64,000 nt of DNA from Actinocatenispora thailandica. Its GTDB lineage: Bacteria > Actinomycetota > Actinomycetes > Mycobacteriales > Micromonosporaceae. The position numbers and the translations under genes are program-made. Positions 34,785 to 60,289 of the stretch are shown here, in pieces. Positions within the stretch are counted from its first letter, which is position 1. Every line of letters starts with the position of its first letter. The DNA lies in contig NZ_AP023355.1 in the NCBI RefSeq assembly GCF_016865425.1, positions 4,090,198 to 4,154,197 of the forward strand, read 5' to 3'. The notes under the pieces were generated by a model. The model saw only the letters and a list, made by a program, of their open reading frames with translations, did not search any database and was not told the origin of the DNA.

Positions 34785-34853
34785 ACCGGCGTGGCCGGCC
34801 CGAACCGGCGTGGCCGGCCCGAACCGGCGTGGCCGGCCCGAACCGGCGTGGCG
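34782..34853. repeat. 19-bp tandem repeat, nearly four copies
   Basis: Unit CGAACCGGCGTGGCCGGCC at 34801-34819 and 34820-34838, with a first copy at 34782-34800 that differs only by T for the first C (creating the TGA stop of the upstream gene), and a partial fourth copy to 34853. Lies between two convergent genes. Each unit contains GGCCGGCC, a small palindrome. Confidence 0.9.
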
Positions 34854-34879
34854 GTCGGCGCCGGCCGCCACGCACCGGT

Positions 34880-46448: not shown

Positions 46449-46500
46449 CGATTACCCACGCGAGGTGGCGAAGTCAATACCATACCTTTCCTGTAGGAAA
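46449..46500 (-). promoter_or_regulatory. lacI operon promoter and upstream palindrome
   Basis: Minus strand: TTGACT (46477-46472), 17 bases, TAATCG (46454-46449); start of transcription expected near 46442, giving a leader of about 35 bases. The palindrome TTTCCT-GT-AGGAAA (46487-46500) lies just upstream of the -35 box and about 52 bases before the plus-strand gene at 46553, so one regulator could affect both directions. LacI binding is inferred. Confidence 0.6.
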
Positions 46501-46552
46501 AGAACCTCCCGCGCGGCGCTCGACCCTTGCCGTGATCGACTAGCCTCCAACC

Positions 46553-48607
46553 GTGACGGTTCGGGCGCTGGCGGTCGATTTCGGGACGTCGAACACGGTT
46601 GCGGTCACCCGGGACTCCGATGGCCGGGCCACCGAGGTGCTGTTCGACGGCTCGCCGCTGCTGCCGTCGGCCGTCTTCGCGGCGCCCGACGGCGAGCTGC
46701 TCACCGGCCGCGACGCGATGCACTCGATGCGGCTCGCGCCCGAGCGGTTCGAGCCGAACCCGAAACTGCGGGTCGACGACGGCACGGTGCTGCTCGGCGA
46801 CACCGAGGTGACGGTCGAGCGACTGTTCGCCGCCGTCCTGCGCCGGGTGGCCGACGAGGCGCACTGGCACGGGCACGGCCCGGTGGTGCTGACACATCCC
46901 GCCGGCTGGGGGCCGCGCCGGCAGGCGGTGCTGGTCGCCGCGGCCGACCGGGCCGGCCTGCCCAACGCCCGGCTCGTCGCCGAACCGGTGGCCGCCGCAC
47001 ACCACCTGACCCGCACCGCCGCCGCGCCCGGCCGCGCCGTCGTCTACGACCTGGGCGCCGGTACCGCCGACGTGTCGGTGGTGGCCGACGGCACGGTGCT
47101 GGCCGCGGAGGGGCTGCCGGACGCCGGTGGGCTCGACGTCGACACCGCGATCGTCGGATACCTGGAGGCCACCTACCGGGATCGCGACCCGGCCGGCTGG
47201 GACCGGCTGCGCCGGCCGGCCACGGCCGCCGATCGCCGGACCTGGCGGCAGCTTGCCGAGGATGTCCGCACCGCCAAGGAGATGCTGTCCCGCACCGCCC
47301 AGACGTTCGTCCACATCCCGCTGCTCGGCATCGACGCACCGCTGGGTCGCGACGAGCTGGAGCGAATCGCCACGCCGTTGCTGCTGCGGACCATCGAGGT
47401 CGCGACCGGCGCCCTCACCGCAGCCGGCGTGCCGATCCCGCCGCCGAGCCCGGTGCTGCTGGTCGGTGGGGCCAGCCGGATGCCGCTGGTGGCCACCCTG
47501 CTGCACCGGCACCTGAAGGTCGCACCGACCCTCGCCGACCGCCCCGACCTCGCCGTGGCCCTCGGCGCTCTCCTCCTCGCCGACTCCGCCGCCACGGCCG
47601 CTCCCGTCCCGGTGGCCGGTCGGCTGCCCGACCCACCACCGGCCAGTCCGGCGGCGCCGTCGACGCCAGCCCCGCCGGCAACTCCGACGCTCGCCACGGC
47701 ACCGGCACCGGCACCGGCCCACGGTGGTGCCGCCGAGGGCACCGAGGTGGCGATGCCGGCGCTGGGCGAGTCGGTCACCGAAGGCACCGTCACCCGATGG
47801 CTCAAGCAGGTCGGCGAGTCCGTCGAGGTGGACGAACCACTGCTGGAAGTGTCCACCGACAAGGTCGACACCGAGATCCCCTCACCGGCCGCCGGCACCG
47901 TCCTGGACATCAAGGTCCAACAGGACCAGACCGCCGGCGTCGGCACCGTGCTGGCGATCGTCGGATCCGGCTCGCCCGCCGCGGCGCGGGCCGGCGCCGG
48001 CGAACCGGCCCCGACCAACGAGCCGGGCGAGACCGCGGGCAGTGCGGACAAGCCCCGCCCGGACCCGGTCACGTACACCAAGAAGCGGCACAAGCAGGCG
48101 ATCGACGCCGGCAGCAAGGGCAGCAGCGTCTCCGTGGTGGTGCTCGTCTTCCTGTGGCTGTTCCCGCTGATCAGCAACCAGCTGGACGAGTACCACGGGG
48201 CGAAGTTCACGCACAACGTCTTCGCCTCGGCGATCATCATGTGCGCGGCGGCGGTGCTGGCCGCGGTGGTGTCCTTCTTCCGGCCGGTCAGCGCGCTCAC
48301 GGTCGGGCCCGACGCGCTGCGGCTGGAACGACGACACATCTCCGGTGCGGTGGTCACCATCACGGTGCCGCGGCACAGCATCGAACGGATCGGCATCAGC
48401 ACCAGCGCGCCGAAGAACAGGCTCGTGGTGTGGTGCCGCGACGGCCACACCCCGGACGGGTTCGCTCGGCTCGACACCCGGCCCGGCGGCGGCTCGCTGC
48501 TGTGCAACCTGAACGACGTGACCAAGGCCGACGACCGGACGGTCGAGATCCACCGGATCGGGTCGGCGATCGAGGCCCTCGCCGGTGCCGCCTACGCGGA
48601 GATCTGA
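46553..48607 (+). CDS. Hsp70-like ATPase fused to a lipoyl domain and a membrane anchor
   Basis: A 684-residue fusion. Residues 1-345 are an Hsp70/DnaK-type actin-fold ATPase: phosphate-1 [11 protein letters not shown], phosphate-2 [15 protein letters not shown] and adenosine motif [11 protein letters not shown]. No substrate-binding domain of DnaK follows. After a Pro/Ala linker, residues about 398-472 are a complete lipoyl domain ([33 protein letters not shown], lipoyl-acceptor Lys437). A basic linker leads to two helices (about 525-541 [13 protein letters not shown] and 555-577 [17 protein letters not shown]). The last 105 residues look like a PH-like domain ([35 protein letters not shown]). 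The lipoyl part is nearly identical in DNA to the second lipoyl domain of sucB. GTG start preceded by TAGCCT-N6 (leaderless pattern). Lipoylation and membrane location are inference. Confidence 0.85.
47726..47970 (+). repeat. 245-bp lipoyl-domain repeat, copy 1 (in the Hsp70 fusion gene)
   Basis: Matches 58916-59160 with two mismatches in 245 bases (47934 C/T and 47937 G/A), same strand, same reading frame, offset 11,190. Identity includes silent positions. Outside the block similarity falls at once (T/C at 47725 and CTC/GGC after 47970). It therefore looks like a recent copy or gene conversion, not ordinary domain conservation. Confidence 0.97.
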
Positions 48608-48746
48608 GCGGCGCCCACCGGCGGCGGGGCCTTGGCGCCCCGGCATCATACGACGGGCATCGAACCAAGCGGGGTGCGGCGCCGCCGCGGATGGGACCGG
48701 TCACGACGGCCCGAGCCGGCGGTACCGCGGCGATAGGGTCGGGTTC

Positions 48747-50032: not shown

Positions 50033-50162
50033 CGGTCACACTCCTCGCCGCTGGACTGCCGCCGGGTTGCCGCCGGAATCTCCGGTAAGAGTACGGTCCC
50101 GCGGCGATGTCGGTGGCGGCCCGGCGCGCGCCGGCAGCCATTCATGGGCCAAGATGTCTCCC

Positions 50163-52118
50163 GTGACGACCGAGCAGCGGGTACTGGTACTGGGCGGGAT
50201 CAGCTCCGGCAAGTCGAGCCTGGCCGAGCGAATGCTGGCGGAAGCACCGGGTGAGCGGCGCTACCTGGCCACCGGCCGGGACAATCCCGACGACCCGGAC
50301 TGGCAGCGCCGGATCGCCGCGCACCGTGAACGCCGCGGCGACGACTGGCTGACCGTCGACTGCTCGACCGGGCCGGACGCCCTGATCGAGGCGCTCGCCG
50401 CCGCACCGGCGGGTGCCGCGGTGCTGGTCGACGACCTGGGCGGGTGGGCCGGCCTGCTGCTGGAGGCGGCCGGCGTGGTCGACGACGAGCCGGCGAAACC
50501 GAAACGCGCCACCAAGCGCACCTCCGCCGCCACCCGCAAACGCGGCGCCGCCAGCGCCCGCACCACCAGCGCGCGCGCCGCCACCGAGCCGCCGACCGGT
50601 GCGGCCGAAGCGGCCGCGGCGGGTGACAGCGCGCCGACGGGTACCGATGCCGCGGGCGCACCGTCCGACGACGCGGCGAGCGAGTCCGGCTCGCCCGCCA
50701 CGGCGGGTGAGCGGGGCGCCGCGCCCGCAGCCGAGCCCGCCGACGGCGCTCCGGCCGGCGCGACCGACGGCGCCGAGCTGCTGGCGACCGCGCCGGCGCG
50801 GCTGGCCGCGGCGGTCGCGGCGAGCCCCGCCGGAACCGTCGTACTGGTCAGCCCCGAGGTCGGGCTGTCGGTGGTGCCGGCGACGCGGTCCGGGCGGCGG
50901 TTCGCCGACCTGCTCGGCGCGATCAACCGGGCGGTGGCCGACGGCAGCGACCGGGTCGCGTTGGTCGTCGCCGGCCGCACCCTCTGGTTGCCCGCCGACG
51001 GCGAGGCGACCGTGCCGGCTGCCGCGGCACCCGCCGTGACCCGGCAGCCGCCGGCCGAGGCGGTGCCGGCGCCGATGGACGCCGCGGAGCCCGTCGACGT
51101 CGGACCGGCCGAACCGGACGACGACATCATCGGTATCCGGCCACCGGACCGCATCGCGATCAACGCCGCCGAGGCGCGGCTGACCGCGCTGGCCAGCGGC
51201 GGAGCCGGCCTCGGCGCGCTGACCGAGCCGGTCGCCTGGGCGCTCGGCGCCGGCGATCTGGCCGGCGAGTGGGAATCGATCCGGGTGCTGCTGGTGGGCG
51301 CCGACCACGACGGCGGCGCCAGGGCCGGCGACCCGCCGGCGGCCAGCGCGATCGAGCGGGTGCAGGCCGGTACCGCGCCGCTCGCCCGCCTCGCCGACCG
51401 CCTCGGCGCCACGGTCGTCGTCGCAGACCTGGCCGAGGCCGGGGGCGCCGCGGCGGTCGAGCCGATGGAGACCGCCGACGTGCTCACCGCCGAGCAGGTC
51501 GACGCCGCGTTCGAGCTGGGCCGCTCGCTCGCCGAGCGGGCCGCGGACGAGGGCGTGCAACTGCTCGTACCGGCGGCGTGCGGCGCCGGCGTGCAGGCGG
51601 TGTCGGCGGCGGTGCTCGCCGCGGCCACCGGCAACGAGCCGGCGAGCCTGATCGGCCGGGTGGTGGGCGAGGCCGGCCGGGTCGACGACGCCGCCTGGAT
51701 CGACCGCTGCGTGGCGGCCCGGGACGCACTGCACCGGGTCCGGCTGCGGTCCCGGGACAGCCGGTCGCTGCTGGCCATGCTCGGCGGGCCGGACCTCGCG
51801 GCGCTGACCGGGCTGATCATCGGCGCGGCGGTCCGGCACCTGCCGGTGTTGGTCGACAACCCGGCGACGGCGACCGCGATGGTGCTGGCGCGCGACATCG
51901 CGCCGAGCTCGCCGTGGTGGTGCCTGATCCCCGACCACGGCCGCGCGCCCGCGGTGCGTACCGTCGCCGACCTGCTCGGCTTCGACACCGTGCTGGACCT
52001 CGGGCTGGGCCTGGGCGACGGCTGCACGGCGCTGACCGCGGTCGGGGTGCTGCAGCCGGCGCTCGCGCTCGCCGCCAGCCTGCGCGGCTCGGACGCCGGC
52101 GAACCGGTACATGCCTGA
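50163..52118 (+). CDS. CobU-CobT fusion (cobalamin nucleotide-loop assembly)
   Basis: A 651-residue fusion. N-terminal CobU-like domain (adenosylcobinamide kinase/guanylyltransferase): P-loop GGISSGKSSL with Lys17, RRYLATGRDNPDDPDWQRRIAAHRERRGDDW, and VLVDDLGGW. It is interrupted at about residues 110-200 by an Ala/Thr/Pro-rich, first basic then acidic insertion, and resumes with VVLVSPEVGLSVVPATRSGRRFADLLGAIN. From about 320 a CobT-like domain (phosphoribosyltransferase for dimethylbenzimidazole) follows. In Salmonella CobT the catalytic glutamates lie in GEMGIGNTT and GEGTGA; here these read PAACGAGVQ (about 469) and GDGCTA (about 617), so both are changed. GTG with CAAGAT seven bases upstream. 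The stop overlaps cobS by 8 bases. Confidence 0.82.
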   Translation: MTTEQRVLVLGGISSGKSSLAERMLAEAPGERRYLATGRDNPDDPDWQRRIAAHRERRGDDWLTVDCSTGPDALIEALAAAPAGAAVLVDDLGGWAGLLLEAAGVVDDEPAKPKRATKRTSAATRKRGAASARTTSARAATEPPTGAAEAAAAGDSAPTGTDAAGAPSDDAASESGSPATAGERGAAPAAEPADGAPAGATDGAELLATAPARLAAAVAASPAGTVVLVSPEVGLSVVPATRSGRRFADLLGAINRAVADGSDRVALVVAGRTLWLPADGEATVPAAAAPAVTRQPPAEAVPAPMDAAEPVDVGPAEPDDDIIGIRPPDRIAINAAEARLTALASGGAGLGALTEPVAWALGAGDLAGEWESIRVLLVGADHDGGARAGDPPAASAIERVQAGTAPLARLADRLGATVVVADLAEAGGAAAVEPMETADVLTAEQVDAAFELGRSLAERAADEGVQLLVPAACGAGVQAVSAAVLAAATGNEPASLIGRVVGEAGRVDDAAWIDRCVAARDALHRVRLRSRDSRSLLAMLGGPDLAALTGLIIGAAVRHLPVLVDNPATATAMVLARDIAPSSPWWCLIPDHGRAPAVRTVADLLGFDTVLDLGLGLGDGCTALTAVGVLQPALALAASLRGSDAGEPVHA

Positions 52119-53091: not shown

Positions 53092-53448
53092 TCAGTCCGG
53101 TTCGGCGTCGTAGCCGGTGGTCAGGCGGCGCGGCGCGGCGGCCCGCCAGGCCGCGACGACGAGCGCCCGCAGCACGGCCGGCTCGATGCGGGCCAGCTCC
53201 ACCCGGACCCAGCCGAACCGGCCGGTCGTGGGTGCCACCGCGTAGGTGTCGGGGTCGCGGGCCACCAGCGACGCCTGCTCGTCCGGGGTGGACTTGACGG
53301 TGGCGTGCGGCTCGTCCGGTGCGGCGACCGCGAACATCTTGCCGCCGACCTGGAACACCGTCTCGGTGCCCCAGGTACCGACCTCCTCGGCGCCGGGCAG
53401 CCCGAGCGCGATCCGGCGGACCTGCTCGAACGTGGCACCGGCCATCAT
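53092..53448 (-). CDS. MmcQ/YjbR-family protein
   Basis: A 118-residue protein of the CyaY-like-fold MmcQ/YjbR family, sometimes described as DNA-binding. Seen: [84 protein letters not shown]; the GLPGAEE and the AWRxxAPR ending are the family pattern. ATGATG at the start; the first ATG (53448) overlaps the gcvT stop, so it is translated after gcvT. No clear functional link to glycine cleavage. Confidence 0.88.
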
Positions 53449-54548
53449 TTCACCGAGGACGGGACGAACGGCGGTTTGACCACCTTCATCGGCGCCCGCC
53501 GGCCGCGGACGTCCACCTCGACCTCGGCGCCGGCGTCCAGGTTCGCGGCGGTGTCCAGCAGCGCCAGGCCGATGCCACGCTTCAGCGTCGGGGAGAACGT
53601 GCCCGAGGTGACCTCGCCGACCCGCTGCTCCCCCACGTACACCGCCATGCCGGGACGCGGGATGCCCTTGCCGGCGGCCGACAACCCCCACAACCGCCGG
53701 GCCGGGCCGGCCTGCTTCTCGGCGAGCAGCTTGTCCCGGCCCCAGAACGCCGGCTTCTTCCAGCCGACGGCCCAACCGGCGCGCGCCTGTACCGGGCTGA
53801 TCTGCATCGACAGGTCCTGGCCGTGCAGCGGATAGCCCATCTCGGTACGCAGCGTGTCGCGCGCGGCGAGGCCGGCCGGCCTCACCGCGAGGTCGGCTCC
53901 CTCCTCCAGCAGCGCATCCCACACCGCCGCGGCGTAGCGCGCCTCCACGACCAGCTCGTACCCGTGCTCACCGGTGTAGCCGGTGCGGCAGACGACGAGC
54001 GGCCGGCCGCCGATCGTGCCCTGCTCGAAGCTCATGTACCCGTGCCGGGTCGGCGCACCGAGCCGGGCCAGCAGGTCGGCCGACATCGGCCCCTGCACGG
54101 CGATGATCGCGTAGTCGTCGTGCCGGTTGGTGACCTCGATGCCGGCCGGCGCCTCGGCGGCCAGCCGGCGCACCACCTCGGCGGTGTTCGCCGCGTTCGG
54201 GATCAGGAACACGTGGTCGTCGGCGAACCGGTACGCGATCAGGTCGTCGACCACGCCGCCGGTCGCGTCGTCGCAGCACAGCGTGTACTGGGCCTGACCG
54301 GCGGCGATCTTGTCCAGGTCGCCGGCCAGGCACGAGTTGACGAAGTCGACCGCGCCGGCGCCGCGCACCGTCGCCTTGCCCAGGTGGGACACGTCGAACA
54401 CACCGACCGCGTTACGCACCGCGTTGTGCTCGGCGAGCACCCCGCCGCCGGCGTACTCCAGGGGCATCTCCCAGCCACCGAACGCAGCGAACTTCGCACC
54501 GAGCGCCCGGTGCCGGTCGTGCAACGGGGAATGCTTGAGGTCGGTCAT
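53445..54548 (-). CDS. gcvT: Glycine cleavage system T protein (aminomethyltransferase)
   Basis: A 367-residue tetrahydrofolate-dependent aminomethyltransferase that takes the aminomethyl arm from lipoylated GcvH and makes methylene-THF and ammonia. Seen: [42 protein letters not shown], the catalytic-Asp region [66 protein letters not shown] and the C-terminal barrel [25 protein letters not shown] 54548 has TAGGTT seven bases upstream on its strand, a likely leaderless start; an upstream in-frame start adds three residues. gcvH and gcvP are not in view. Its partner chemistry depends on lipoyl protein, as does the sucB system nearby. Confidence 0.95.
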
Positions 54549-54681
54549 GGGTGGCAACCTACCCGCCGGCCGTCGACCTCTAGCATCGACTCCGGTCCGG
54601 CCGCGACGGCGTCACGACGCAGCGCGAACCGGACACCGCCACAACGACGTGGTCACCCTGTGACCGTTACGGAGGCTTCGC

Positions 54682-56172
54682 GTGAGTTCGCTTGCTCTCG
54701 CCGACACCAACCTTGCCAGCCTGCCCGCCGACGCCGTCGTCGTCGGGCTGTACCGGTCGGCCGACGGCGCGCCGACCCTGGCGCCCGGCGCGGCGGAGCT
54801 CGACGCCGCCTTCGACCACCGGCTCGTCGACACGCTGGTACTGCTCGGCGCCACCGGCGCCGTCGGCGAGGTGACCCGGCTGGCCAGCCTGGGTACCGTG
54901 CCGGCGCCGCTGGTCGCCGCGGTCGGCCTGGGCGCCGCCGAGGATGCCGACGACGAGGCGGTACGCCGGGCCGCCGGTGCCGCGGTCCGGGCGCTGGCCG
55001 GTTCGGCGACCGTCGCGCTGGCGCTGCCGGCGCTGCGGCCGGCGGCGGAGGGCGCCGCGCTCGGCGGGTACCGGTTCACCCGCTACCGCGCGGCGACCGA
55101 CACCGACCGCGCGCCGGTGGCGAAGATCCAGCTGGTCGTGCCGGATGCGAAGGACCGGGCGGCGAAAGCGGAGCTGAAGCGGGCCGCGGCGCTGGCCGAC
55201 GCGGCGAGCTTCACCCGAGACTGGGTCAACTCCCCGGGCAACGAGCTGCGGCCACCGGCGTTCGCCGACGCGGTGTCGAAGGCGGCCACCAAGGCCGGCC
55301 TCGCGGTCGAGGTACTCGACGAGAAGGCGCTGCGCAAGGGCGGGTACGGCGGCATCCTCGCGGTCGGCCTCGGCTCCGCGCAGCCGCCGCGACTGGTCCG
55401 CCTGGCGTACTCGCCGCGTGGCAAGGCCGCCGCGAAGGTGGCGCTGGTCGGCAAGGGCATCACGTTCGACACCGGCGGGCTGTCGATCAAGCCGGCCAAG
55501 GGCATGTGGGAGATGAAGAGCGACATGGCCGGCGCCGCCGCGGTCGCCGGCGCCATGCTCGCCATCGCCGCGCTCAAGCCGAAGGTCGAGGTCGTCGCGT
55601 ACCTGCCGATGGCGGAGAACATGCCGTCCGGCTCGGCGTACCGGCCGGGCGATGTCGTCACCATGTACTCGGGGACCAGGGTCGAGGTGCTCAACACCGA
55701 CGCCGAGGGCCGGATGGTGCTGGCCGACGCGATCGCCCGGGCCTGCGAGGAGGGCCCCGACTACCTGTTCGAGACGTCCACCCTCACCGGCGGCCAGGTC
55801 ACGTCGCTGGGCCACCGGATCGCCGGCGTGATGGGCTCCGAGTCGCTGCACGAGCGGGTGCGCGCGGCCGGCGAGCGGGTCGGCGAGCCGATGTGGCCGA
55901 TGCCGCTGCCGGAGGAGATCGCCAAGCTGATGACCTCCGACGTCGCGGACCTGTCGCAGGTCGCGACCGGGATGGACCGCTCCGGTCACATGCTGCAGGG
56001 CGGTTACTTCCTCTCCCGGTTCGTCGCCGACGGCGTCGACTGGGCGCACCTGGACGTGGCCGGCCCCGCCTACCACGAGTCCGAGGAGTACGGCTACCTG
56101 CCGAAGGGCGCCACCGCGGTGCCGTTGCGGACGTTGGTCGAGCTGGTCGTCGACGTCGCCGACAACGGCTGA
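54682..56172 (+). CDS. pepA: Leucyl aminopeptidase (M17)
   Basis: A 496-residue cytosolic metallo-aminopeptidase. The N-terminal domain (residues 1-165) is variable; the catalytic domain has FTRDWVNSPGNELRPPAF, VGKGITFDTGGLSIKPAKGMWEMKSDMAG (metal Lys, Asp residues), LPMAENMPSGSAYRPGDV, NTDAEGRMVLADAI (metal Asp/Glu and active Arg) and TLTGGQVTSLG. All metal ligands of M17 are present and the length is normal. GTG with ribosome site ACGGAGG. Divergent from gcvT over 133 bases. Releases N-terminal residues from peptides. Confidence 0.95.
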   Translation: MSSLALADTNLASLPADAVVVGLYRSADGAPTLAPGAAELDAAFDHRLVDTLVLLGATGAVGEVTRLASLGTVPAPLVAAVGLGAAEDADDEAVRRAAGAAVRALAGSATVALALPALRPAAEGAALGGYRFTRYRAATDTDRAPVAKIQLVVPDAKDRAAKAELKRAAALADAASFTRDWVNSPGNELRPPAFADAVSKAATKAGLAVEVLDEKALRKGGYGGILAVGLGSAQPPRLVRLAYSPRGKAAAKVALVGKGITFDTGGLSIKPAKGMWEMKSDMAGAAAVAGAMLAIAALKPKVEVVAYLPMAENMPSGSAYRPGDVVTMYSGTRVEVLNTDAEGRMVLADAIARACEEGPDYLFETSTLTGGQVTSLGHRIAGVMGSESLHERVRAAGERVGEPMWPMPLPEEIAKLMTSDVADLSQVATGMDRSGHMLQGGYFLSRFVADGVDWAHLDVAGPAYHESEEYGYLPKGATAVPLRTLVELVVDVADNG

Positions 56173-56249
56173 GCGGGGGGCACCGCTTTGCGCTGAGGTG
56201 CTGCCCGAAGCGCTCGTGTCGGCGCTGGGTTCGTTTGTTGGCACCCGCG

Positions 56250-56414
56250 AAAGGCCACCTCTGTTGGTCTTCTCGACCCCTTGTGGGGGAACGTGGGGAG
56301 CAGACTTCGCCCCTCCCCACACCCCCACCCCTCCCCGTCTGCAACGCGACGCGACGCGAGCGTTGCCGTGAGGGGTGGCCGGGCCGCTTCCCTGTACGAA
56401 CAGAGGTGGCCTTT
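56250..56414. repeat. 165-bp structured element bounded by perfect 16-bp inverted repeats
   Basis: AAAGGCCACCTCTGTT (56250-56265) and its exact reverse complement AACAGAGGTGGCCTTT (56399-56414) enclose 133 bases. Inside, GTGGGGAG (56293-56300) pairs with CTCCCCAC (56313-56320), and GCAACGC (56341-56347) with GCGTTGC (56360-56366). The base composition (C-runs, some T) differs from neighbouring genes. It lies between two convergent genes. It could be a miniature transposable element, a structured RNA or an elaborate terminator. I saw no second copy in this window. Confidence 0.7.
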
Positions 56415-56482
56415 ACACCGCCAGCCCACGGCGGCGTACCTCAGCGCGGAGGTACAGGAGGGCATGGAGGTACAGGCCAGGT

Positions 56483-56803
56483 TCAGTGCGAGGCGCGCTG
56501 GCGGGCGTTGTAGTCGCGCATGCGTTGGGGGTAGCCGAGCTTGCCCACGTCGTACACCGGGATGCCGACGCGGCGGCCGAAGGCGAGGGCGGCGGGATGA
56601 GTGAGGCGCCGGCGGGTCCACTCACCGTCGTGCCCGATCAGGATCACCGTCTGCCCGGTCATCAGTGTCGCGGGCTCCAGGTACGCCTCGACACCGGTGC
56701 GACTGGCCACGAACCGCTCCAGGTGCGCCAGGTCCGCCGGGTCCGCGGCCTGCTCCGCCCGTGCTCCGCGACCACGCTGGACGCGCCGCGCGAACAGTCC
56801 CAC
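56483..56803 (-). CDS. Conserved actinobacterial protein, unknown function
   Basis: A 106-residue protein starting VGLFARRVQRG, with a short basic N-terminus, then LAHLERFVASRTGVEAYLEPATLMTGQTVILIGHDGEWTRRRLTHPAALAFGRRVGIPVYDVGKLGYPQRMRDYNARQRA. The GVEAYLEP, GHDGEWTRRR and GYPQRMRDYN blocks are strongly conserved in actinobacteria as I remember them; no function assigned. GTG 56803 with ribosome site GAGGAGGAAG decides the start; the open frame continues upstream only as shadow. Opposite strand to lpd. Confidence 0.85.
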   Translation of the reverse strand: MGLFARRVQRGRGARAEQAADPADLAHLERFVASRTGVEAYLEPATLMTGQTVILIGHDGEWTRRRLTHPAALAFGRRVGIPVYDVGKLGYPQRMRDYNARQRASH

Positions 56804-57024
56804 CGTTCTTCCTCCTCGCCGGTGCCGATCATGGTCGCCGCACAGCGTACGGCCAGCGAACCGTGCGGCGCGCGCCGCACGTCGACAACTCCTCATACCG
56901 GCACGAACAGCGCCATCGGGGCCGGGGTCGCCGAGTATGACGGGTCTCATGAACGGGCGTTCGTGTCCGGGTGCCAAGATGGCCGGGGCACGCAACGGCG
57001 CGGCACGGCGAGGCGGGAGATGAC

Positions 57025-58413
57025 GTGAGCGAGGCAACCGACAGCTATGACGTGGTCGTCCTCGGTGGCGGCAGCGGTGGGTACGCCACCGCGTTGCGCG
57101 CCGGCAGCCTGGGGCTGACCGTCGCGCTCGTCGAGAAGGACAAGGTCGGCGGCACCTGCCTGCATCGGGGTTGCATCCCGACCAAGGCGTTGCTGCATGC
57201 CGGTGAGGTCGCCGACGCCGCCCGCGACGCCGCCCAGTTCGGCGTGCGTGCCAGCCTGGACGGTGTCGACCTGGCCGGCGTCAACAAGTACAAGGACGGC
57301 GTCGTCACCCGGCTGTACAAGGGGTTGCAGTCGACGCTCGCCGCGCGCGGCGGCATCAGCACGATCGAGGGCACCGGTCGACTGGTCGCCCCGGACACCG
57401 TGCAGGTCGGCGACCGGCGCATCACCGGCCGGCACGTGGTCCTCGCGACCGGGTCGTACTCCAAGTCGCTGCCCGGGCTCGCGGTCGACGGCGAGCGGGT
57501 CATCACCTCCGAGCACGCGCTCTCGCTCGACCGGCTGCCGGAACGGGCGGTGATCCTGGGCGGCGGCGTGATCGGCGTCGAGTTCGCCAGCGCCTGGCGC
57601 TCCTTCGGCGTGGACGTGACGATCGTCGAGGCGCTGCCCCGGCTGGTCGCCGCCGAGGACGAGGAGGTGTCCAAGGCGGTCGAGCGCGCGTTCCGCCGCC
57701 GCGGCATCGGCTACGTCACCGGCAGCCCGTTCACCGGGGTGGAGAAGACCGCCGAGGGCGTCCGGGTCGCCGTCGAGGGCGGCAAGACGTTCGACGCCGA
57801 CCTGCTGCTGGTCGCGGTCGGCCGCGGTCCGGTCACCGCCGACCTCGGCTTCGAGCAGCTCGGCCTGGCGATGGACCGCGGGTACGTGACCACCGACGAG
57901 CGGCTGCGCACCAACCTGCCCGGGGTGTACGCGGTGGGCGACATCGTGCCCGGCCTGCAGCTCGCGCACCGAGGCTTCGCGCAGGGCATCTTCGTCGCCG
58001 AGGACATCGCCGGCCTCGACCCACGGCCGATCGACGAGGCCGGCATCCCGCGGGTCACCTACTGCGAGCCGGAGGTCGCCTCGGTCGGCCTGACCGAATC
58101 CGCCGCCCGCGAGCGGTACGGTGCGGACAAGGTGGAGACTCTCACCTACAACCTGGGCGGCAACGGCAAGAGCCAGATCCTCAAGACCCAGGGTTTCGTC
58201 AAGCTGGTCCGGGAAGGTGACGGTCCGGTCGTCGGTATCCACATGGTGGGTTCCCGGGTCGGTGAGCTGATCGGTGAGGCACAGTTGATCTACAACTGGG
58301 AGGCGTTCCCGTCCGACGTCGCTCCGTTCGTCCACATGCACCCGACCCAGAACGAGGCGCTCGGCGAAGCACACATGGCTCTTGCCGGCAAGCCGTTGCA
58401 CGTCCACAGCTGA
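57025..58413 (+). CDS. lpdA: Dihydrolipoyl dehydrogenase (E3)
   Basis: A 462-residue FAD flavoprotein that reoxidises dihydrolipoyl groups with NAD. Seen: FAD site [20 protein letters not shown], redox disulfide [30 protein letters not shown] site [54 protein letters not shown], and the C-terminal His-Glu pair in [14 protein letters not shown]. All are standard and the length is normal. GTG 57025 follows ribosome site GGCGGGAG. Forms an operon with sucB, 73 bases downstream. It would also serve GcvH or any other lipoylated protein in the cell. Confidence 0.97.
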
Positions 58414-58486
58414 CGCCGCCCGGGTCGGTGCCCACGCACCAACCCGGGCACGCGCCAGCCTGAATCGCAAGCGAGGAGTCCTACCC

Positions 58487-60289
58487 ATGCCGACCTCGGT
58501 CACCATGCCGCAGCTCGGAGAAAGCGTCACCGAGGGCACCGTCACCCGGTGGCTCAAGCAGGAGGGCGACCGGGTGGAGGTCGACGAGCCGCTGCTCGAA
58601 GTCTCCACCGACAAGGTCGACACCGAGATCCCGTCGCCGGCCGCCGGGGTGCTGTCCCGCATCGTCGTACCCGAGGACGAGACCGTCGACGTGGGCGCCG
58701 AACTGGCGCAGATCTCCGGCGACGGCGAGTCCGCCCCGACCCAGCAGGCCGCCGAGCCGCCGCAGCCCCCGGCATCCCAGCAGTCCGAGCCTGCCCAGCC
58801 CGAGCCTGCCCAGTCCGAGCCTGCGCAGTCCGAGCCGGCCCCGCAGGCACCGGCGCAGCCCGCCGCCCCGCCGGCGCAGCCGGAGCCGGCGGCCGAGGCG
58901 CCGGCCCCGTCCGGCGGTGCCGCCGAGGGCACCGAGGTGGCGATGCCGGCGCTGGGCGAGTCGGTCACCGAAGGCACCGTCACCCGATGGCTCAAGCAGG
59001 TCGGCGAGTCCGTCGAGGTGGACGAACCACTGCTGGAAGTGTCCACCGACAAGGTCGACACCGAGATCCCCTCACCGGCCGCCGGCACCGTCCTGGACAT
59101 CAAGGTCCAACAGGACCAGACCGTCGACGTCGGCACCGTGCTGGCGATCGTCGGATCCGGGGCGCCGGCCGCGGCGCCGAGCCGGCCCGGCCAGCCCGCA
59201 CCGGCCCCGACGCCCGCACCGACTCCCCCGGCTCCGACTCCGGCGCCCGCGCCGGAGCGGCCCGCGGCGCCGATCGCGCAGCCGGTGCAGCAGACCGCAC
59301 CGGCCGCCGCGCCGCAGGTTGAGCGGCCCGCGCCCACCCAGCAGGCCGGCGGCGACGGGCCGTCCGGCTACGTGACACCGCTGGTGCGCAAGCTCGCCGC
59401 CGAGCACGGCATCGACCTCGGGTCGCTGACCGGCACCGGTGTCGGTGGGCGGATCCGCAAGCAGGACGTGCTGGACGCGGCCGAGGCGAAGAAGCAGGCG
59501 GCCGCGAAGCCGGCCGCACCGGCACCGGCACCGGCAGCGGCGGCGCCCACCGCGGCGCCGAGCCCGCTGCGCGGCCGTACCGAGAAGCTGCCCCGGATGC
59601 GGCAGGTCATCGCCAAGCGGATGGTCGAGTCGCTGCAGACCGCCGCGCAGCTGACCACGGTGATCGAGGTCGATGTGACCCGGATCGCGCAGCTGCGCGC
59701 CCGGGCCAAGAACGAGTTCGCGGCGCGGCACGGCGTCAAGCTGTCGTTCCTGCCGTTCTTCGCGCTGGCCGCGGTCGAGGCGCTGCGGGAGCACCCGAAG
59801 CTGAACGCGTCGATCGACACCGAGCAGAAGACGGTCACCTACCACGACACCGAGAACCTGGCGATCGCGGTGGACACCGACCGTGGGCTGATCGTGCCGG
59901 TGATCCACAACGCCGGTGACCTCAACCTCGCCGGGCTGGCCCGACACATCGCCGACCTGGCCGAGCGCACCCGCGACAACAAGGTCAGCCCGGACGACCT
60001 CGCCGGCGGTACTTTCACGCTGACCAACACCGGCAGCGTCGGCGTCCTGTTCGACACGCCGATCTTCCCCCAGCCGCAGGTGGCCATGCTGGGCACCGGC
60101 GCGGTGGTGAAGCGCGCGGTGGTCGTCGACGACGAGAACCTGGGCGAGATCATCGTGCCGCGCTCGATGGTCTACCTCGCCCTGTCGTACGACCACCGGC
60201 TGGTCGACGGTGCCGACGCGGCCCGCTACCTGGCGACGGTCAAGGAGCGGCTGGAGGCGGGCGACTTCGAGTCCTCGCTCGGCCTGTAA
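58487..60289 (+). CDS. sucB: 2-oxoacid dehydrogenase E2, dihydrolipoamide succinyltransferase type
   Basis: A 600-residue E2 core protein. Lipoyl domain 1 at residues 2-78 (Lys43 in STDKVDTE), a Glu/Pro/Ala linker with [11 protein letters not shown] repeats, lipoyl domain 2 at about 149-225 (Lys189), a second Pro/Ala linker, the peripheral subunit-binding domain at about 295-332 ([31 protein letters not shown]), and the acyltransferase domain from about 365, with [23 protein letters not shown] and the active site [18 protein letters not shown] 58487 has ribosome site GAGGAG. Cotranscribed with lpdA; E1 is not adjacent. In actinobacteria such E2 proteins may serve both pyruvate and 2-oxoglutarate complexes. 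Lipoyl domain 2 shares 245 near-identical bases with the Hsp70 fusion gene. Confidence 0.95.
58916..59160 (+). repeat. 245-bp lipoyl-domain repeat, copy 2 (in sucB)
   Basis: Partner of 47726-47970, two mismatches (59124 T, 59127 A, giving Val-Asp where the other copy has Ala-Gly). The first lipoyl domain of the same gene encodes much the same protein but differs at many silent sites, so the close match to the distant Hsp70 gene is not explained by selection on protein alone. Confidence 0.97.

What the first reader, a model, noticed from the sequence alone, without database searches (positions are those of the whole stretch)
46553..48607. Hsp70-type ATPase fused to a lipoyl domain, two membrane helices and a PH-like domain
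The protein has all three Hsp70 nucleotide motifs but lacks the DnaK substrate-binding domain. In its place it carries an intact lipoyl domain with acceptor Lys437 inside STDKVDTE, then a membrane hairpin and a PH-like domain. I know of no described Hsp70 with a lipoyl arm. A lipoylated, membrane-tethered chaperone-like ATPase could couple ATP hydrolysis to the redox state of lipoate, or dock to E3 (lpdA) or the E2 complex at the membrane.
Basis: partly seen in the sequence, partly recalled or inferred. Interest (0 to 1): 0.92.

Follow-up and report, generated by a model that had tools for sequence, protein, structure and literature searches.

The report
Hsp70-like protein with captured lipoyl domain
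In one actinobacterium, a membrane-anchored Hsp70-type ATPase gene carries a near-perfect copy of a lipoyl domain taken recently from the nearby E2 gene of a 2-oxoacid dehydrogenase complex: a domain fusion apparently caught soon after it arose, whose function is untested.

Summary
ORF 46553-48607 (+, 684 aa) has an Hsp70 ATPase domain without a substrate-binding domain, an intact lipoyl domain (LD, acceptor Lys437) and two predicted membrane helices; the PH-like tail is only suggested. The new result is the LD's origin. A 245-bp block (47726-47970) matches the second LD of the E2 gene (58382-60289), 11,190 bp downstream on the same strand, at 243 of 245 bases. The 74-codon LD core has 0 synonymous differences from its own E2, against 15 synonymous codons between that E2 and each of two sister species, so the copy postdates the species split. 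The gene is absent from the same site in the three other genus genomes searched. None of 118 other Hsp70-type ORF rows carries an LD. The gene belongs to an actinobacterial family of NBD, Pro/Ala linker and variable, mostly membrane, tail; the LD landed in that linker. Best reading: a young in-frame domain capture that probably makes a membrane-tethered extra lipoyl acceptor for AceE/OdhA/Lpd (OdhA here has no LD of its own). Lipoylation and function are untested. A neutral insertion is an equally strong rival; an assembly artefact is disfavoured, not excluded.

The parts
46553..48607 (+). whole gene, 684 aa: Hsp70-type NBD - Pro/Ala linker - lipoyl domain - linker - membrane hairpin - beta-rich tail
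46553..47587 (+). Hsp70-type nucleotide-binding domain (residues 1-345), catalytic residues kept, no substrate-binding domain follows
47588..47737 (+). Pro/Ala-rich linker 1
47726..47970 (+). 245-bp block, 243/245 identical to E2 LD2 DNA at 58916-59160; mismatches at 47934 and 47937
47738..47962 (+). lipoyl domain (residues 396-470), acceptor Lys437 codon 47861-47863
47963..48088 (+). linker 2
48125..48280 (+). predicted membrane hairpin, helices 525-546 and 554-576
48293..48604 (+). beta-rich C-terminal domain, PH-like only by weak model
46486..48642 (.). stretch without counterpart at the same site in G001 and G003 (40 and 69 bases there)
58931..59152 (+). second lipoyl domain of the E2 gene (58382-60289): source of the copied block
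56971..58413 (+). lpdA (E3, dihydrolipoyl dehydrogenase), candidate partner, beside E2

Best explanation
SHOWN: a lineage-specific member of the actinobacterial family of Hsp70-type ATPases without a substrate-binding domain (NBD, Pro/Ala linker, variable mostly membrane tail) carries, in frame and in its linker, a copy of about 245 bp of the second lipoyl domain of the E2 gene 11 kb away. The copy was made, or last overwritten, after this species split from its closest sequenced relatives. INFERRED: the copying was ectopic recombination or gene conversion, helped by GC-rich Pro/Ala-coding linkers on both sides. INFERRED: with two membrane helices, the NBD, LD and tail all face the cytosol, and LipB/LipA octanoylate and lipoylate Lys437 because the domain is almost letter for letter E2's own. 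INFERRED, less certain: the protein then works as a membrane-tethered extra lipoyl arm. AceE and OdhA acylate it and Lpd reoxidises it, so it recruits part of the PDH/ODH machinery to the membrane or competes with E2 for it, while the ATPase domain acts on whatever the membrane tail binds. Step-wise confidence: recent copy from E2 0.85; lipoylated if expressed 0.6; a selected role as lipoyl carrier or tether 0.25. The 0.4 below is for the chain up to a lipoylated, membrane-tethered arm that meets these partners; the neutral rival overlaps with it and is not exclusive.
For: DNA copy of 243/245 bases at a distance of 11,190 bp; 0 synonymous codon differences to own E2 LD2, against 15 between this E2 and each of G001 and G003. 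At both mismatches the four E2 LD2s of the genus agree and the fusion differs. Gene absent from the same site in G001 and G003; another ORF, sulfatase-like by eye, sits there in G002. 0 of 118 other Hsp70-type rows have an LD, no LD match in the 80 named loci in any frame, and none of the LD matches in the four genus genomes falls on another Hsp70-type match. A sister protein (L081, G003) has a related NBD, a linker and two membrane helices but no LD. Both linkers are Pro/Ala-rich, with a 20-bp exact GCACCG-type match. lipB is present 15 kb beyond the window end. OdhA in this genome has E2o and E1 domains but no LD. [quoted passage not shown]
Against: No expression, proteomic or biochemical data. 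The LD fusion was seen in one genome only. Both changes since the copy are amino-acid changes (TVDVG to TAGVG) and none is synonymous, so purifying selection on the LD is not shown. The protein has no E3-binding and no acyltransferase domain, so docking to the complex would rest on the LD alone. The LD was not modelled as folded: that alignment held no LD rows and pLDDT there was under 50. No promoter-like or terminator-like site was found by the simple scan.
Confidence: 0.4

Rival explanations
1. Neutral passenger: the lipoyl domain copy is a recent accident in a tolerant linker. The protein keeps its old role (whatever the NBD and membrane tail do), and the LD, lipoylated or not, has no selected function.
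For: The copy is young and seen in one genome. It sits in a low-complexity linker. The two changes since copying are both amino-acid changes, one at a Val that the seven other LD sequences compared all keep. Tails in this family are highly variable anyway.
Against: The reading frame is intact on both sides and the acceptor Lys region is unchanged. Even an accidental LD is likely to be modified and bound by E1/E3 (inference), which would rarely be without effect.
Confidence: 0.4
2. Assembly or library artefact: a chimeric join placed E2 sequence into the Hsp70 gene.
For: The copy is almost exact, lies near its source on the same strand, and is flanked by GC-rich low-complexity sequence. Reads were not available. 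No second genome of this species was seen.
Against: At the two internal mismatches all four E2 LD2s of the genus agree and only the fusion differs, which argues for a second real copy. The frame is kept entering and leaving the block. The E2 gene itself is intact and collinear with the sisters. The genome is a single 7.4-Mb contig.
Confidence: 0.1
3. Redox-coupled chaperone: the dihydrolipoyl arm reports or changes the thiol state of clients or of the NBD and is coupled to ATP hydrolysis.
For: An Hsp70 NBD with catalytic residues and an intact LD sit in one chain, with lpdA nearby.
Against: No substrate-binding domain, and the LD is a recent graft onto an older NBD.
Confidence: 0.05
4. Older fusion kept fresh by gene conversion: the gene has had an LD for long and is periodically overwritten from the E2 gene.
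For: Similarity continues beyond the 245-bp block at lower identity (297/318 overall, 9 gap positions). The gene itself is an old paralogue (end branch 0.46).
Against: No homologue with an LD in the other genus genomes or in the 80 named loci. The similar flanks are low-complexity Pro/Ala code.
Confidence: 0.1

Closest known systems
Actinobacterial Hsp70 family proteins without substrate-binding domain
   Same: NBD 44-68% identical, Pro/Ala linker, variable and mostly membrane tail. PMC7159879 (passages) mentions gene neighbourhoods, mainly of actinobacteria and firmicutes, in which a subset has a second gene with only the HSP70 domain and no peptide-binding domain.
   Different: None of the 118 rows compared has a lipoyl domain.
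Actinobacterial E2 (NCBIfam SucB_Actino; by inference AceF/E2p of the PDH/ODH supercomplex)
   Same: Lipoyl domain with 72 of 74 core residues identical to LD2; Pro/Ala linkers.
   Different: No E3-binding domain and no acyltransferase domain; an ATPase and a membrane hairpin instead. The fusion scores 145 bits on SucB_Actino, below its cut-off of 423.
LbpA, a lipoate-binding protein outside the 2-oxoacid dehydrogenases (PMC6067878, passages)
   Same: Lipoyl-type domain used outside the classical complexes.
   Different: LbpA is a single-domain GcvH-like protein of sulfur oxidation with its own ligase; here an E2-type LD is grafted onto an Hsp70-type ATPase.
Canonical DnaK/Hsp70
   Same: ATPase fold and catalytic residues.
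   Different: No substrate-binding domain.

Membership tests
Hsp70 (DnaK) chaperone | Actin-fold ATPase with phosphate motifs and catalytic D/K/E/D/T | tested here: met
Hsp70 (DnaK) chaperone | Substrate-binding domain after the NBD | tested here: not met
   Pfam HSP70 match ends at profile position 373 of 599
Hsp70 (DnaK) chaperone | ATP-dependent client binding | not testable with these tools
   needs protein
Actinobacterial SBD-less Hsp70-type family (NBD, linker, variable tail) | NBD of this clade, Pro/Ala linker, membrane or other tail | tested here: met
   in an 11-row clade of genus paralogues, SH-aLRT 100, quick search; tails listed
E2-type lipoyl domain | Profile match with acceptor Lys in a DK turn | tested here: met
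   72 of 74 residues of own LD2. That DK marks the acceptor is recalled knowledge.
E2-type lipoyl domain | Lipoylated in the cell | not testable with these tools
   needs mass spectrometry; lipB present; lipA not searched
2-oxoacid dehydrogenase E2 | E3-binding domain and acyltransferase domain | tested here: not met
   no Pfam match in this protein, both present in the E2 at 58382-60289
PH domain | PH fold after the hairpin | tested here: inconclusive
   no Pfam match over cut-off; weak model and weak Foldseek trend; sister tail not significantly similar
Anti-phage defence protein (PADLOC) | match to a PADLOC model | tested here: not met
   0 families at E 0.01

The most novel reading that the evidence does not exclude
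A membrane-anchored, ATPase-controlled second lipoyl carrier has just been born in an actinobacterium: lipoylated at Lys437, it supplies or diverts lipoyl arms in trans to OdhA and AceE and places part of central carbon metabolism at the membrane under control of an Hsp70-type ATP switch.
Probability: 0.12. Interest if true: 0.85.

Novelty: new variant of a known kind. Interest (0 to 1): 0.5.

Why it matters
It is a domain capture close to its origin: donor, recipient, copy length and order of events can be read from the sequence, and a sister protein without the insert (L081) stands in for the 'before' state. If the domain is lipoylated it adds a second lipoyl carrier in a phylum where E2p was reported as the only lipoylated protein in two species, M. 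tuberculosis and C. glutamicum, and where OdhA needs lipoyl in trans (PMC10415282, passages). That is directly testable by mass spectrometry. It also suggests (inference) that Pro/Ala linkers of this Hsp70-type family are joints where tails and domains are exchanged.

Tried and rejected
Whole-family searches with the full protein or NBD+LD gave no usable answer (n 400 asked, n 100). It is not a full census.

Tail relatives: the 183-aa tail matched 10 of 353 other family genomes, only at E 0.001-0.01. A first look read all loci on the + strand, so minus-strand ones were shown in the wrong frame; read correctly the ORFs look unrelated or like non-coding antisense frames by eye, and they were not followed further. 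No relative in genome contigs (52 stretches matched a pattern, none confirmed; this reaches close relatives only). Homology of the window tail with the sister L081 tail was tested and not supported: BLASTP best E 0.35; 92, 125 and 243 of 1000 shuffles reach the score under three settings, and in a 200-shuffle control 5 of the other 105 tails gave a higher z than L081. Searching the family with the L081 tail gave G003 itself plus two weak matches at E 6e-4 and 7e-4.

A defence role was considered: no PADLOC match. Neighbour genes of related loci (16 loci listed, proteins printed for 8): no partner common to all; 3 of the 7 loci of the nearest clade (L081, L083, L086) have an FAD_binding_3 gene beside them, which the window gene does not. 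The promoter/terminator scan found nothing. The PH label is left open. A combined NBD+LD alignment misaligned the NBD end and was replaced by A4 with no LD rows, which is why the LD has no structural model. The NBD tree left out 7 of the 121 rows (two copies of the window gene, five partial or duplicate rows) and used the quick method.

Full report
What is there. The ORF at 46553-48607 (+) encodes 684 aa. Pfam finds HSP70 (1.3e-28, residues 85-344) and Biotin_lipoyl (1.3e-20, 398-469). The HSP70 match stops at position 373 of 599, so the substrate-binding domain is missing. Five ATPase residues (D9, K71, E144, D166, T171) align with the same letters in the genome's own DnaK and are kept in 42 or 43 of the 43 rows of alignment A4. 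The AlphaFold2 NBD has pLDDT mostly above 90 and matches DnaK structures. The acceptor lysine is residue 437. Two hydrophobic helices follow, then a beta-rich domain whose PH identity is not established. GC at the third codon position is 0.74-1.00 in all segments, so the whole chain looks coding.

A known kind of protein with a new part. The genome holds eight other genes with this NBD at 45-56% identity, apart from DnaK. All three other genus genomes also have several. Plasmid homologues in 15 records are annotated 'Hsp70 family protein'. A published survey notes gene neighbourhoods, mainly actinobacterial and firmicute, some with a protein having only the HSP70 domain without its peptide-binding domain (PMC7159879, passages).

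In the NBD tree (114 rows, quick search) the window protein falls in an 11-row clade of genus paralogues (SH-aLRT 100), next to G002C4, G003_438 and G002C29 in an open group of four (support 90), with an end branch of 0.46. The gene is thus not a recent duplicate of any sampled paralogue. Of the 121 Hsp70-type ORF rows, three are the window gene itself. None of the other 118 (86 from the 80 named loci, 32 from genus genomes) carries a lipoyl domain at blastp E 0.001. Six of the 118 are cut by a locus end and a few are the same gene fetched twice. A tblastn of the LD against all 80 named loci gave no match in any frame. In the four genus genomes all LD-type matches lie away from the Hsp70-type matches, apart from the window gene. 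The nearest 'before' state is L081 in G003: a related NBD (64-65%), a long Pro/Ala-rich linker, two membrane helices and an end that looks similar in layout, but no LD. Sequence similarity of the two tails is not significant (92 of 1000 shuffles reach the score).

Where the lipoyl domain came from. The block 47726-47970 is identical at 243 of 245 bases to 58916-59160, the second lipoyl domain of the E2 gene, 11,190 bp downstream on the same strand. NCBIfam names that E2 SucB_Actino, well over the cut-off (814 bits). I take it to be AceF/E2p by inference, because OdhA in this genome carries its own E2o domain. Over the 74-codon core the fusion differs from its own E2 LD2 by two amino-acid codons and no synonymous codon. 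This E2's LD2 differs from LD2 of sister genomes G001 and G003 by 15 synonymous codons each. The copy was therefore made, or last overwritten, after these species parted. Both changes (TVDVG to TAGVG) are on the fusion side, since at both bases the LD2s of G000, G001, G002 and G003 agree.

The locus. G001 and G003 align at about 86-93% on both sides, and their sequence runs from the LacI-type regulator straight to the aldo/keto reductase gene: 40 and 69 bases lie where the window has about 2.1 kb. In G002 another ORF, sulfatase-like by eye, sits there. The repeat scan lists no inverted repeat pair at the two ends of the inserted stretch; mobile elements were not searched otherwise. G001 is very likely Actinocatenispora comari, because its contig of 191,189 bp equals record NZ_BOPO01000150.1.

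How it most likely works. Two membrane helices put the NBD, LD and tail on the same, cytosolic, side; this is inference. lipB is present 15 kb beyond the window end. The LD is nearly E2's own, so modification of Lys437 is likely if the protein is made; this too is inference. In this genome OdhA has E2o and E1 domains but no lipoyl domain. [quoted passage not shown] tuberculosis and C. [quoted passage not shown] A second, membrane-tethered lipoyl arm could therefore recruit or divert part of this machinery. That is my preferred functional reading at about 0.25. A neutral passenger domain in a tolerant linker is at least as likely (0.4). An assembly artefact is put at 0.1: the two derived differences, the kept frame and the intact E2 locus speak against it, but reads were not available.

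Novelty. A literature search for Hsp70 with lipoyl domain and fusion listed six papers, seen as listing and abstract beginnings only, none of them on such a protein by title. Further searches on SBD-less or actinobacterial Hsp70-like proteins (0 papers; 37: 4; 49: 30, of which 20 listed; 88: 111, of which 10 listed) gave no description in what I saw, which was listings plus passages of PMC7159879 and PMC8195603. I rate it a new variant of a known kind: a known Hsp70-type family with a freshly captured lipoyl domain.

Noticed in passing
L081:4218-5876, L083:3740-4951, L086:4566-5762: An FAD_binding_3 (monooxygenase-type) gene lies beside the Hsp70-type gene in 3 of the 7 loci of the nearest NBD clade (L080-L086), in different orientations. 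Not seen beside the window gene.
   Followed up: partly
window 50142-52118 (+): One ORF carries CobU (adenosylcobinamide kinase, two matched stretches) and a DBI_PRT (CobT-type) phosphoribosyltransferase domain in one chain, with cobS directly after it.
   Followed up: no
window 53445-60289 and G000:C1:4169607: Lipoate-related genes lie close together: gcvT, lpdA, E2 and, 15 kb beyond the window end, lipB.
   Followed up: partly
L002, L053, L057: One Hsp70-type paralogue in each of G000, G001 and G003 has a tail of 373 aa with no predicted membrane helix; it lies beside another aldo/keto reductase gene.
   Followed up: no
L113, L116, L134, L144, L146, L150: These loci (two Dactylosporangium, four Pseudonocardiaceae) hold two Hsp70-type NBD ORFs within the same fetched stretch.
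   Followed up: no
window 34785-34878 (-): ARAGORN reports a tRNA-like match with a four-base anticodon and unknown type.
   Followed up: no
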